Source: Specibacter cremeus
GTDB taxonomy: Bacteria; Actinomycetota; Actinomycetes; Actinomycetales; Micrococcaceae
DNA length: 48,125 nucleotides
Assembly (NCBI RefSeq): GCF_003946885.1
Contig: NZ_RWKQ01000036.1
Span: 1-48,125 of the forward strand
Reading direction: 5' to 3'
Position numbers and translations under genes: made by a program. The notes below the pieces were generated by a model. That model worked only from the letters and a program-made list of their open reading frames with translations, did not search any database and was not told the DNA's origin. Shown here piece after piece: positions 34,614 through 47,275 of the stretch; within the stretch, counting starts at the first letter, position 1, and every line of letters begins with the position of its first letter.

Positions 34614-35489
34614 TTGCGCACACACATCCCCCTCGTGGCCGCCCAGGCTCCTCCCCAGCTCATCGGCGCCCCGCTCTCAGACTTCGCCGACGAGGCCTGC
34701 CGGGCCATGGACCGGCACCCCGACGCGGAACTGCTCGTCTTCCCGGAGCTTCACCTCTTCGGCGACGGCGTGCCGGACCGTCAACGCGTCGAGGCCCTCC
34801 GAAGCTCCGCCGAGCCGCTCGACGGCCCTCGCGTTGAGGGGCTCGCAGACCTCGCGAGGGAGCTTGGCGTTTGGCTGGTGCCGGGAAGCCTGTGCGAAGC
34901 GGGCACTCGGGGCGAGTTGTTCAACACACAGATCGTTCTCTCGCCCGCTGGTGAGCTTGCGGGCAGCTACCGAAAGATCTTCCCCTGGCGCCCCCACGAA
35001 CCATACGACCCGGGTGACCGGTTTGCCGTTGTCGACCTGAACGGTGCGGGCCGTGTCGGACTGAACATCTGTTACGACGCCTGGTTTCCGGAAACGACGC
35101 GCCAGCTTGCCTGGATGGGCGCCGACATCATTCTCAATGTCGTCAAGACAACGACGCCGGACCGTGCCCTGGAGCTGGTGCTGGCTCGGGCGAATGCAAT
35201 CGTGAACCAGGTCTTCGTCGTGAGCGTCAACTGCGCCGGGCCGACCGGCGAAGGGCGCAGCCTTGTGGTCGACCCCGAGGGCACCGTCCTCGCCGAGGCC
35301 CCAGATGCGGCACCGACCCTGCTCGCCGTTGACCTGGACCTGACCGCCCTCGACCGCGTTCGCGCGGTCGGTACGGCCGGTGTGAGCCGCGTGTGGGCGC
35401 AGTTCCGGCCCGGCGAGGCACCGATCGATCTGCCCGTCTACGCCGGACGGATCGACCCGGCCACTTGGGCCCCCCAGCCCCGCGAATAA
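34614..35489 (+). CDS. Carbon-nitrogen hydrolase (nitrilase superfamily)
   Basis: 291 residues from a TTG at 34614 with GAAGAGG eight bases upstream; a longer frame from 34434 is open but its extra residues do not fit the family. The catalytic triad is E45 (VFPELHLFGDG), K121 (SYRKIFPW) and C153 (GLNICYDAWFPE). The enzyme would hydrolyse an amide, carbamoyl or nitrile bond in the cytoplasm. It is the first gene of the LacI-type locus, 112 bases before the first HisD-like gene. High CTC and GAG codon use as in the rest of this region. Confidence 0.85.
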   Translation: MRTHIPLVAAQAPPQLIGAPLSDFADEACRAMDRHPDAELLVFPELHLFGDGVPDRQRVEALRSSAEPLDGPRVEGLADLARELGVWLVPGSLCEAGTRGELFNTQIVLSPAGELAGSYRKIFPWRPHEPYDPGDRFAVVDLNGAGRVGLNICYDAWFPETTRQLAWMGADIILNVVKTTTPDRALELVLARANAIVNQVFVVSVNCAGPTGEGRSLVVDPEGTVLAEAPDAAPTLLAVDLDLTALDRVRAVGTAGVSRVWAQFRPGEAPIDLPVYAGRIDPATWAPQPRE

Positions 35490-35565
35490 GGTGGCGAGCA
35501 GCCTCCCGCCTCACTGCGTCCGCGCCCGTACAGTGGCGGACCGCCACCATACCCCGATGTGCCCC

Positions 35566-35606
35566 TTGTCACAGCGGCCGCAGAGCCTTACTGTATACGT
35601 ATGCAC
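35566..35606 (+). promoter_or_regulatory. Promoter and LacI operator at the first HisD-like gene
   Basis: TTGTCA (35566-35571), a 17-base spacer and TACTGT (35589-35594) make a promoter whose start point would fall near 35601, the A of the ATG. The operator TGTATACGTATGCAC (35592-35606) covers the -10 box and start codon. This predicts a leaderless mRNA blocked by the repressor. Confidence 0.55.
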
Positions 35607-45086: not shown

Positions 45087-46067
45087 GTGCCCCTCAACCC
45101 GATTGCCTACGCACCCTACAGCGACCCCGATGACTTCATCCGGGAGGTCACCGACTACATCTGGGTCGAGCGCCAGATCGGCTTCATCCGCGACAACTAC
45201 GAGCCGGACTCGATCGTGCACGGCTCCTACGGCACCTCCACGACCCGCCAGGAAGTCATCGAAGGATGCCTCATGCGCATCTCGAATGCGCCAGAGCACA
45301 TCGGCCAGGCGGGCGACGTGATCTGGGAGGCGCGCGGGGACGATGCCTTCCTCAGCTCCCACCTCGTCCTCTCCGGCGAGGAGGACTTCAGGGTCGTGGG
45401 CCGCACGATCGCCAACTGCCTCTACCGGCGCGGGCGCATGGTCGAGGAGTGGGTCGTCCGCGACGAGCTCGCCCATGCCCTCCATCGGGGCCTCGACCCG
45501 GAGGAGGTCGCGCGCACCAAGTCGTTCCGCGGGTACACCGGCTCGTTCACGGGCGCCGCGCCGGCCGATGTCATCGCCGTCGGCGACTCCGGCCCCCGCC
45601 CCGACGACTTCCGCAGCGAAGTCGAGGACGTCCTGGGGATGATCGAGCAGGTATGGAACGGGCGCGACCTGAAGAAGGTCGACGAGTTTTTCGTCCGCGA
45701 CCTCACCCTCCACACGGTCGGCAACGAGCTCATCATCCGCCCCGAGGGCTACCGCCGACAACTGCTGCGCTTCCTCGACGCCTTCCCCGGCGGGCAGTTC
45801 GAAGTCCGTGACCTCCAAACCCACAACGACCCCCGATACGGCGGCCTCCGGATCGCCGTGACGTGGAAGTTCACGGGCGACTACCTCGGCCGGCCACGGT
45901 ACGGGGCCCCGACCGGCAAGCCCGTCGACGTCCTTGGCATCTCGCAGTTCCTCGTCCAGAACGGCCGCATCGTCAACGAGGTGAAGCTGTGGGACGACAT
46001 CGCCCTGCGCACGCAGATCAACGCCACACGCGGCGACGGGCCCGAACCCGCCCTCAACATCTACTGA
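45087..46067 (+). CDS. Two-domain SnoaL-like (NTF2-fold) protein
   Basis: 326 residues, GTG start. Two tandem NTF2-fold domains: the first about 15-135 (EVTDYIWVERQIGFIRDNYEPDSIVHG...GRMVEEWVVRDELAHALHRGLDP), the second about 180-315 (VLGMIEQVWNGRDLKKVDEFFVRDLTLHTVG...NGRIVNEVKLWDDIALRTQI). Such SnoaL-like polyketide-cyclase-related proteins include hydrolases, isomerases and dehydratases. The pair with the bicupin is 32 bases apart and forms an operon. Role in the pathway unknown; isomerase or hydratase is possible. Confidence 0.85.
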   Translation: MPLNPIAYAPYSDPDDFIREVTDYIWVERQIGFIRDNYEPDSIVHGSYGTSTTRQEVIEGCLMRISNAPEHIGQAGDVIWEARGDDAFLSSHLVLSGEEDFRVVGRTIANCLYRRGRMVEEWVVRDELAHALHRGLDPEEVARTKSFRGYTGSFTGAAPADVIAVGDSGPRPDDFRSEVEDVLGMIEQVWNGRDLKKVDEFFVRDLTLHTVGNELIIRPEGYRRQLLRFLDAFPGGQFEVRDLQTHNDPRYGGLRIAVTWKFTGDYLGRPRYGAPTGKPVDVLGISQFLVQNGRIVNEVKLWDDIALRTQINATRGDGPEPALNIY

Positions 46068-46099
46068 TCCCACCCCGCCCCCGAAGGAGACAAACCACC

Positions 46100-47275
46100 A
46101 TGACCAGCTCAACCCTTTCGGAGCCATCCGTCGACAGCGCCGAGATCCAACGCCGCACCATCCGCCGCACGGACTGGGTCGCGTGCAACGCGGCCTTCAT
46201 TGACTGCCGGACCCCGGGCTCCGACAAGAAGGAGAACTACGCCTTCATCGGTCCCGGCGTCTCACAGAACGCCAACCAGTACGTCAACCTCACCGAACGG
46301 CACGGCTTCAACACGGGAGCAGCAGGAATGCCGAAGGGCATCAGCAACAACCTCCACCTGCACTTCACGGCCGAGGTGTTCATCAACCTCGGCGGCGAGT
46401 TCCGGCTCCGCTGGGGCGCGGACGGCACACAGGGCGAATACGTCGCCACGGACGGTGACATCATCTCCGTCCCCACCTGGATCTTCCGCGGCTTCACGAA
46501 CGAGGGTCCCGACGACGGCGTCCTGTACACGGTCCTCGGCCACGACGACACCGGTGGCATCATCTGGGGCCCGTCCGTGCTCCGCGACGCCGAATCCTAC
46601 GGCCTGCACCTCACCGCCGACAATCGGCTCATCGACACCGTGGCGGGCGATGAGATCCCGAAGGACACCGCGCTCATCAAGCCCATGCGGCAGCGATTCA
46701 TCGACGAGCTCACGAGCTACTCCCCCGAGCAGATGCGCTCCCGCGTCATCCAGTCCGGCGACCGCGTCTACAGCGACCACGCGCTCCTGTGCAATGCTGT
46801 GCCCGGCGGCGGCGCCCAGCTGGCCCTGGTCATCGGCTACGGCATGAGCGAGGACCGCCGGCAGGTTCCGCCGATCCACGAACCGCACAGCTTCAACCTC
46901 GCATGCCTGCGGGCACAGCCGGGCGAGGGCGTGCTGCGGCACCGCCACGAGCGACCCCAGGTCGTGCTCGTGAAGTCCGGACGCTGGTCGATCACGCTCA
47001 ACGGCGACCCGGACACGAGCCTCGTGCTCGGCCCCTCCGATTCATTCTCGGTCCCGGCCGGCGCATGGCGGGAGTTCCGCTGCCTCGAAGCGGGCGAGAC
47101 CACCGCAACCGAGGAAACCGGAGAGCTCCTGGTGATCAACGCGGGCGACGACAGGGTGCGCCTCGAATGGGCGCCCGAGGTTTCCGCCGCTGCTCACGAC
47201 GCCGGCCGGGTCATCGACCCCAACGGATACATCGCCCCCACAGCCGTCATGGAAGACGCCGCAGAGGACGACTGA
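46100..47275 (+). CDS. Bicupin protein
   Basis: 391 residues, ATG with AAGGAGA upstream. Two cupin barrels: the first with LHLHFTAEVFINLGGEFRLRWG and DGDIISVPTWIFRGFTN, the second with GEGVLRHRHERPQVVLVKSGRWSITL and PSDSFSVPAGAWREFRC. Histidines of both barrels could bind metal (HLHFTAE; RHRHERPQ). The architecture resembles gentisate-dioxygenase-like and other bicupins; a dioxygenase or isomerase activity is possible. The N-terminus has ITRTDW-like RRTIRRTDWVACNAAFIDCRTPGSDKKENYAFIGPGVSQN. Confidence 0.85.
   Translation: MTSSTLSEPSVDSAEIQRRTIRRTDWVACNAAFIDCRTPGSDKKENYAFIGPGVSQNANQYVNLTERHGFNTGAAGMPKGISNNLHLHFTAEVFINLGGEFRLRWGADGTQGEYVATDGDIISVPTWIFRGFTNEGPDDGVLYTVLGHDDTGGIIWGPSVLRDAESYGLHLTADNRLIDTVAGDEIPKDTALIKPMRQRFIDELTSYSPEQMRSRVIQSGDRVYSDHALLCNAVPGGGAQLALVIGYGMSEDRRQVPPIHEPHSFNLACLRAQPGEGVLRHRHERPQVVLVKSGRWSITLNGDPDTSLVLGPSDSFSVPAGAWREFRCLEAGETTATEETGELLVINAGDDRVRLEWAPEVSAAAHDAGRVIDPNGYIAPTAVMEDAAEDD

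What the first reader, a model, noticed from the sequence alone, without database searches (positions are those of the whole stretch)
34614..47275. Undescribed LacI-regulated pathway with two HisD-family dehydrogenases
Hydrolase (C-N), two alcohol-to-acid dehydrogenases, importer, alpha/beta hydrolase, pyruvate-type aldolase, SDR, two-domain SnoaL protein and bicupin suggest full catabolism of an imported compound with an amide or similar bond: hydrolysis, oxidation of CH2OH to COOH, then retro-aldol cleavage. I know no described pathway with this gene set. The two HisD copies may act on two ends or two stereoisomers.
Basis: inference. Interest (0 to 1): 0.7.

Follow-up and report, generated by a model that had tools for sequence, protein, structure and literature searches.

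The report
Conserved uncharacterised LacI-controlled catabolic regulon
A bacterium carries a matched set of import, oxidation and cleavage genes, kept together and under one conserved DNA switch in many other bacteria, that probably breaks down a sugar-acid-like compound that is not yet identified.

Summary
The gene set at 34614-47275 is real, intact and far above chance. A bicupin-anchored scan kept 80 named loci (the best 80 of 259): 64 carry the same core six (LacI, bicupin, alpha/beta hydrolase, HisD2, SDR, HpcH aldolase), 53 of these also HisD1 and a SnoaL-type protein, 44 of these also a nitrilase-type hydrolase. A palindrome, TGCATACGTATGCA, lies before four of its units and occurs in 76 of 80 loci, mostly before snoal, hisD2, sbp or cup. 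It has two separable modules: the core, and a peripheral hydrolase + HisD1 + SnoaL module. In some Proteobacteria unrelated enzyme families fill the hydrolase and aldolase slots. Both HisDs keep catalytic residues but lack the published histidine of sulfopropanediol dehydrogenases and fall in two old clades; the genome lacks the SuyB-type domain. The sulfonated-diol idea is not supported. Elsewhere the bicupin/aldolase/hydrolase trio sits with 3-oxo-tetronate (Otn) genes, hinting at a four-carbon sugar acid. The substrate is unknown. Six paper searches found no description.

The parts
34614..35489 (+). Nitrilase-superfamily C-N hydrolase (peripheral module)
   Evidence: PF00795; FPELH, YRK and CYD motifs; in Arthrobacter sp. 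AQ5-06 an 81% homologue lies about 150 bases upstream of hisD1 on the same strand; 74% DNA paralogue at C36. No operator match before it.
35592..35605 (.). LacI-operator-like palindrome at hisD1 (overlaps its likely ATG at 35601)
   Evidence: TGTATACGTATGCA, 1 mismatch; in relatives only 2 of 185 matches lie before hisD1
35601..36953 (+). HisD1: HisD-family dehydrogenase, peripheral-module clade, motif GRFPL
   Evidence: TIGR00069; clade sister to HpsN + R-DHPS dehydrogenase but without the HpsN His
36957..36970 (.). Operator-like palindrome before the importer operon
   Evidence: TGCATACGTATGTT, 2 mismatches; 35 of 185 matches in relatives lie before sbp
37015..38346 (+). Sugar-type (CUT1-like) solute-binding protein
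   Evidence: PF01547; closest solved chains are mostly named as sugar binders
38430..39302 (+). ABC permease 1
   Evidence: 27% to an annotated Ensifer permease over 342 columns
39299..40189 (+). ABC permease 2
   Evidence: 35% to an annotated Ensifer permease over 292 columns
40186..40896 (+). Alpha/beta hydrolase, enol-lactonase-like
   Evidence: PF00561; best NCBIfam PcaDC/PcaD, below cut-off; GLSLG, GTAD, DAGH; labelled in 77 of 80 loci
41030..41785 (-). HpcH/HpaI class II pyruvate-type aldolase
   Evidence: PF03328; H48, R73, E153, D179 invariant in 8 rows; closest solved chain YfaU 2-keto-3-deoxy sugar aldolase
41782..42543 (-). Short-chain dehydrogenase
   Evidence: PF00106; GGGTGLG and YCASK; labelled in 76 of 80 loci
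42537..43895 (-). HisD2: HisD-family dehydrogenase, core-module clade, motif GRYPL
   Evidence: TIGR00069; clade sister to Klebsiella, Pantoea, Roseibium, Ruegeria, Marinovum and Mesorhizobium enzymes
43906..43919 (.). Operator-like palindrome between hisD2 and lacI
   Evidence: TGCATACGTATGCG, 1 mismatch; 37 of 185 matches in relatives lie before hisD2
43979..44974 (+). LacI-family regulator
   Evidence: PF00356 + PF13377; ATG at 43979 read from the sequence, start not proven
45028..45041 (.). Operator-like palindrome before SnoaL-bicupin
   Evidence: TGCATACGCATACA, 2 mismatches; 55 of 185 matches in relatives lie before snoal
45087..46067 (+). Tandem NTF2 / SnoaL-like protein
   Evidence: PF07366; model pLDDT 92.4, NTF2-type matches
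46100..47275 (+). Bicupin; first cupin has H86, H88, E92, and R130 where I place the usual fourth His ligand
   Evidence: PF07883; these four invariant in 35 rows; model pLDDT 87.8, nearest folds oxalate decarboxylase, quercetinase, seed storage proteins

Best explanation
This is a two-module catabolic regulon controlled by one LacI regulator. Shown by sequence: the gene set, its co-occurrence, a shared conserved palindrome, intact active-site motifs. Inferred: a sugar-type ABC importer brings in a small polyhydroxylated, probably acidic, compound. The peripheral module (C-N hydrolase, HisD1, SnoaL) converts an amide-bearing relative into the core substrate. In the core, the bicupin and the alpha/beta hydrolase isomerise or open and hydrolyse a ring, lactone or dicarbonyl unit; HisD2 oxidises an HOCH2-CHOH- end by four electrons to an alpha-hydroxy acid; the SDR oxidises that to an alpha-keto acid; and the HpcH aldolase splits it into pyruvate (or hydroxypyruvate) and a second oxo fragment. 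The order of steps is a guess. In other lineages the fragment seems to go through 2-/3-oxo-tetronate by OtnI-OtnK-OtnC instead of HisD+SDR, so a four-carbon sugar-acid unit is the best clue to the substrate.
For: Core six in 64 of 80 loci; with HisD1 and a SnoaL-type protein 53; with a hydrolase too 44. Palindrome: 5 matches against 0.54 expected in the window, four of them in the cluster; 76 of 80 loci, 185 matches, before snoal 55, hisD2 37, sbp 35, cup 32, lacI 5, hisD1 2, other labelled genes 2, none 17; permuted palindromes (40 drawn) mean 2.8, largest 37. Zn, Glu-His and Asp-Lys residues kept in both HisDs. Aldolase slot: HpcH, or an RraA-family protein in Roseibium and, as I read its annotation, Marinovum. 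Hydrolase slot: three nitrilase groups, or an amidase in Pantoea and Roseibium. Trio beside otnK and otnC in Ensifer, Thioclava, Salinivibrio and Vibrio and beside a DUF1537-like kinase in L108. Importer slot: ABC; an MFS group found in 25 of 80 loci, whose one scanned member is of metabolite/H+ symporter type, below that model's cut-off; TRAP.
Against: No substrate, expression or enzyme data. The window hydrolase has no operator match before it; 24 of 80 loci have none labelled (L030 has one just outside the locus). hisD1 is seldom preceded by the palindrome in relatives (2 of 185 matches) and often has a LysR gene near it (LysR labelled in 54 of 80), so HisD1 may have its own regulator there. 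One permuted palindrome reached 37 matches. L051 shows no importer and no alpha/beta hydrolase label. Ruegeria has a MetE-like protein and no aldolase next to the trio. The bicupin's nearest folds are generic (TM about 0.5), so its chemistry could be dioxygenase, decarboxylase or isomerase. The own genome has no PF07005 kinase, so the tetronate link rests on other organisms. The window aldolase carries DCEHG, that of the Otn clusters DLQHG or DMQHG, so the two may differ in substrate.
Confidence: 0.5

Rival explanations
1. A DHPS (sulfopropanediol) or related organosulfonate pathway, with HisD1 and/or HisD2 acting as HpsN.
For: Both are closer to HpsN (8v35) than to histidinol dehydrogenases by score, and the HisD1 clade is sister to HpsN + R-DHPS dehydrogenase in the tree (the tool warns of long branches meeting).
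Against: The HpsN signature ends in His (GRYAH, GRYSH); the window has GRFPL and GRYPL, and 0 of 149 HisD rows checked (some genes twice) has that His. PF04295 (SuyB type) absent; Xsc model TIGR03457 hits only far below its cut-off, as in all 14 controls. No sulfonate lyase gene seen in the cluster. CuyA-type lyases were not tested.
Confidence: 0.06
2. The two HisDs act on two ends or two stereoisomers of one imported compound.
For: Both lie by the same palindrome in the window; 56 of 80 loci carry both labels.
Against: They are old clades. 13 of 80 loci have only the hisD2 label and 8 only hisD1 (some loci are cut and labels are greedy). Klebsiella has one HisD, of HisD2 kin, in its stretch. 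In Pantoea and Roseibium the second HisD comes from a third clade. That suggests a feeder step rather than a second end.
Confidence: 0.2
3. A route for ascorbate-type lactones: bicupin oxygenolysis and an esterase give a C4 acid (threonate), which HisD2 and SDR take on toward tartrate-like acids, and Otn enzymes take to DHAP elsewhere.
For: Trio linked to otnK/otnC and, in part, otnI; a dehydrogenase with similarity, below cut-off, to L-threonate dehydrogenase beside it in L075 (tartronate semialdehyde reductase models score higher); bicupin fold near oxalate decarboxylase and quercetinase. The chemistry is recalled, not tested.
Against: Gives the aldolase no clear role; no ascorbate-oxidising or gluconolactonase-type gene was seen in the cluster.
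Confidence: 0.12
4. Unrelated neighbours brought together by mobile-element traffic, with no joint function.
For: The cluster is bounded by resolvase and zeta-toxin-like debris.
Against: The set recurs in most of 80 loci over many genera, with the palindrome in 76; even the hydrolase keeps its place next to hisD1 in Arthrobacter sp. AQ5-06.
Confidence: 0.02

Closest known systems
DHPS 3-dehydrogenase HpsN (PMC11382572; abstract and passages seen)
   Same: HisD fold family; Zn Gln/His, catalytic Glu-His and Asp-Lys kept; HisD1 clade is its sister in the tree
   Different: Lacks the HpsN-defining His126; other operon partners; no SuyB-type domain in the genome
Biosynthetic histidinol dehydrogenase HisD
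   Same: TIGR00069 and PF00815 match nearly the whole length
   Different: A third HisD gene at C50 groups with 4g07 in the tree; the window copies group elsewhere (long branches)
Otn pathway for four-carbon acid sugars (OtnI, OtnK, OtnC; PMC12540250, search listing and start of abstract only)
   Same: The bicupin-aldolase-hydrolase trio sits with otnK and otnC in four plasmid records looked at
   Different: The window genome has no PF07005 kinase and the cluster has HisD+SDR instead
HpaI / GarL / YfaU pyruvate aldolases
   Same: Catalytic His, Arg and metal Glu, Asp kept; closest solved chains
   Different: Below the cut-offs of the five NCBIfam models listed, so substrate not assigned
Meta-cleavage style dioxygenase-hydrolase-aldolase logic (recalled)
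   Same: The enzyme types resemble it
   Different: The bicupin has only weak sequence matches to solved cupins and no aromatic genes were seen in the cluster

Membership tests
HpsN (DHPS 3-dehydrogenase) | Motif G-R-Y-A/S-H with sulfonate-contacting His126 | tested here: not met
   GRFPL and GRYPL in the window; 0 of 149 rows has His
HpsN (DHPS 3-dehydrogenase) | Zn ligands and equivalents of Glu318-His319, Asp352-Lys353 | tested here: met
   Q265/H268, E333/H334, D367/K368 in HisD1; Q252/H255, E320/H321, D354/K355 in HisD2. C-terminal His: found by pattern in HisD1; in HisD2 the pattern failed and I read it by eye.
HpsN (DHPS 3-dehydrogenase) | Oxidises R-DHPS to R-sulfolactate | not testable with these tools
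   needs an assay
Histidinol dehydrogenase (biosynthesis) | Groups with biosynthetic HisD; only HisD of the genome | tested here: not met
   Separate branch; a third HisD at C50 groups with 4g07 (long branches). The paper's HisD motif GSAPL did not show in 4g07 or the C50 protein with my pattern, so that motif alone was not used.
LacI regulon | Shared palindromic operator before the units, conserved with the regulator | tested here: met
   binding itself not tested; hisD1 is an exception in most relatives
HpcH/HpaI aldolase | Catalytic His, Arg and metal Glu, Asp | tested here: met
   invariant in 8 of 8 rows; residue roles recalled
Nitrilase superfamily | Glu-Lys-Cys triad motifs | tested here: met
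   FPELH, YRK, CYD found; roles recalled
Otn pathway | DUF1537-type kinase (PF07005) in the genome | tested here: not met
   0 matches in the own genome; 3 of 14 controls positive
Metal cupin | HxH...E plus fourth His | tested here: inconclusive
   H86, H88, E92 invariant in 35 rows; at the fourth place R130, also invariant (placing by eye from the motif)

The most novel reading that the evidence does not exclude
A previously undescribed, widespread bacterial pathway for a common natural polyhydroxylated amide or acid, using a third functional class of HisD-family enzymes (motif G-[RK]-[FY]-P-[LIM], neither histidinol nor sulfopropanediol), a new bicupin enzyme with a two-histidine-one-glutamate site and a tandem NTF2 enzyme, whose C4 product is routed either through HisD+SDR or through OtnI-OtnK-OtnC.
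Probability: 0.5. Interest if true: 0.7.

Novelty: new variant of a known kind. Interest (0 to 1): 0.55.

Why it matters
Genes annotated as hisD tend to be read as histidine biosynthesis. Here two old HisD clades belong to a conserved catabolic gene set seen in Arthrobacter, Microbacterium, Pseudonocardia, Amycolatopsis and Streptomyces among others and, in related form, on plasmids of enterobacteria, rhizobia, roseobacters and vibrios. Correct naming would mend many annotations, and finding the substrate would reveal a nutrient shared by soil, plant and marine bacteria. The conserved palindrome makes the inducer directly testable.

Tried and rejected
Rejected: DHPS/sulfonate route; biosynthetic HisD; chance neighbourhood. 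Considered and left open: ascorbate-type lactone; kojic acid (paper search listed nothing on its catabolic genes among the 10 of 182 shown); pantothenate (recalled chemistry does not suit HisD, which wants OH or NH2 next to the CH2OH).

Led nowhere: profile search of the bicupin against solved structures gave only weak cupin hits; fold search of SnoaL gave NTF2-type folds of many functions; the binding protein's hits were mostly sugar binders of several kinds. The ORF picker missed genes, so counts come from tblastn labels. Those labels are greedy (best label per stretch, 60 bits or more), and some loci are cut short (L030 lost its hydrolase this way), so they are lower bounds. The 80 loci are the best 80 of 259 relatives, so they lean to close kin. 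The permuted-palindrome control drew 40 shuffles of the half-site; its largest count, 37, is well below 185 but not negligible. The paper library holds open-licence PMC papers only.
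Full report
What is there. The window is listed as G000:C30:1-48125; the genome holds 4,313,802 bases in 98 contigs. The reported genes are present as open frames and match their families. Left to right: C-N hydrolase, HisD1, binding protein, two permeases, alpha/beta hydrolase (plus strand); aldolase, SDR, HisD2 (minus strand); LacI, SnoaL, bicupin (plus strand). Active-site motifs are intact.

Co-occurrence. The bicupin was used as the anchor. Of 297 genomes sampled from the order, 8 including the own one carry it. The 20-kb stretches around the other 7 carry HisD1, HisD2, SDR, aldolase, LacI and SnoaL; L019 and L021 show no importer genes, L021 no alpha/beta hydrolase, L020 no C-N hydrolase label. 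A scan of named genomes with a bicupin alignment found 259 relatives and kept the best 80, by title nearly all Actinomycetota. tblastn labels within 10 kb: cup 80, abh 77, lacI 76, sdr 76, aldolase 75 (plus 3 of another subtype), hisD2 69, snoal 66, hisD1 64, perm2 55, perm1 54, LysR 54, sbp 43, hydrolase groups 33, 13 and 11. Core six together: 64 of 80; with HisD1 and a SnoaL-type protein 53; with a hydrolase 44. Both HisD labels: 56; hisD2 only 13; hisD1 only 8; neither 3. In the 7 order relatives the hydrolases labelled are 32-39% identical to the window's; a nearer group (51-61%) occurs in 11 of 80 loci, so the slot is conserved more than the gene.

One regulon. The palindrome TGCATACGTATGCA matches four times in the cluster, at hisD1, before the importer, between hisD2 and lacI, and before snoal; a fifth, weaker match lies at 5821 outside it; 0.54 are expected by chance. 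In the 80 loci 76 have at least one match with at most 2 mismatches. The 185 matches lie before snoal 55, hisD2 37, sbp 35, cup 32, lacI 5, hisD1 2, abh 1, an ATPase 1, and no labelled gene 17; 40 permuted palindromes gave a mean of 2.8 and a maximum of 37. So the core and importer are consistently marked; HisD1 is marked in the window but rarely elsewhere, where a LysR gene is often near. The hydrolase has no match before it in the window. In Arthrobacter sp. AQ5-06 an 81% homologue lies about 150 bases upstream of hisD1 on the same strand, in a stretch identical to L030 where they overlap, so it belongs with the cluster there too.

Two modules and swapped slots. The Klebsiella michiganensis stretch carries LacI, one HisD, SDR, MFS, alpha/beta hydrolase, aldolase and bicupin, without SnoaL or hydrolase. 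Pantoea dispersa carries both modules, with an amidase-signature enzyme, two HisDs, two SnoaL-type proteins and an MFS. Roseibium aggregatum carries both, with an amidase and an RraA-family protein in the hydrolase and aldolase slots. Ruegeria and Marinovum have HisD, SnoaL-type proteins, a LacI or unnamed regulator, cupin, alpha/beta hydrolase and a MetE-like protein. In Ensifer, Thioclava, Salinivibrio and Vibrio the trio sits with otnK and a second aldolase that I take for otnC; otnI is annotated in Salinivibrio and Vibrio, a TIM-barrel protein takes its place in Thioclava, and Ensifer shows none. In Actinomycetota, L108 has a DUF1537-like kinase and L075 a hydroxyacid dehydrogenase beside the trio; both hits are far below the named models' cut-offs. 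Roseomonas and Rhizorhabdus carry the trio without HisD in the stretch.

The HisD enzymes. By score both are nearest to HpsN among solved chains. The HpsN paper (abstract and passages seen) gives GRYAH/GRYSH as diagnostic against GSAPL in HisD; the alignment shows Leu at the His place in HisD1, the window motifs are GRFPL and GRYPL, and the 149 rows checked read G-[RK]-[FY]-P-[LIM] (some genes counted twice). Catalytic and zinc residues are kept. In a 52-row tree (18 relatives of each kind drawn at random plus named rows) hisD1 and hisD2 are each one clade with full support; hisD1 is sister to HpsN + R-DHPS dehydrogenase, hisD2 is sister to the Klebsiella, Pantoea, Mesorhizobium and roseobacter-type enzymes; the second HisD of Pantoea and Roseibium is a third clade; the C50 HisD groups with a biosynthetic one on long branches. 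So these are two old, separate lineages and perhaps a third function in the family. PF04295 is absent and Xsc is not above its cut-off in the genome.

How it may work. HisD chemistry turns HOCH2-CHX- into HOOC-CHX- (known for the family; HpsN). An SDR beside it can make the alpha-keto acid, and an HpcH or RraA aldolase can then split a 4-hydroxy-2-oxo acid. This ordering is inference. The bicupin keeps HxH and Glu in its first cupin, with an invariant Arg where I place the usual fourth ligand, and its model resembles oxalate decarboxylase and quercetinase only loosely. The Otn neighbours suggest that a 2- or 3-oxo-tetronate-like fragment arises. The window genome has no PF07005 kinase, so it would use HisD+SDR. 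CUT1-type ABC, a metabolite/H+ symporter-like MFS group (25 of 80) and TRAP importers fit a small hydroxylated acid.

Verdict. The amide claim is plausible for a peripheral module. The sulfonate suggestion is not supported. The substrate is unknown. The searches for a description found none in the open library.

Noticed in passing
34184-34336 and 47888-48040: 91% direct repeat of a resolvase 3' part bracketing the cluster; the right copy is a resolvase frame (PF00239) that runs to the window end, and a zeta-toxin-like fragment lies at 34434-34547. The cluster may sit on a mobile island.
   Followed up: partly
35592-35605: The operator-like palindrome overlaps the likely ATG of hisD1, as if the transcript were leaderless.
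   Followed up: no
L005:6175-7068 (G000:C36): A 74% (DNA) paralogue of the cluster hydrolase sits near what look by eye like an APC-type permease, GntR-type regulators and a glutamate-type ABC importer.
   Followed up: partly
L018:6789-8459: In this relative a protein that looks by eye like an NCS1 permease lies next to the hydrolase, perhaps hinting at an N-containing substrate.
   Followed up: no
L110:9057-10181 and L113:9036-10157: A MetE-like (cobalamin-independent methionine synthase family) gene lies between cupin and alpha/beta hydrolase; its role there is unexplained.
   Followed up: no
L044: A record titled Planococcus carries a cluster whose HisD1 falls among Microbacterium sequences in the tree; perhaps a mislabelled or contaminated record.
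   Followed up: no
L115, L117, L120: HisD genes of a third clade (L115 and L117 placed in the tree; L120 only by 68% identity) on rhizobial and Paraburkholderia plasmids lie near small cupins and ABC importers; substrate unknown.
   Followed up: partly
24683-27021: An MFS transporter followed by a transketolase N-terminal-type protein lies upstream, possibly another sugar gene group.
   Followed up: no
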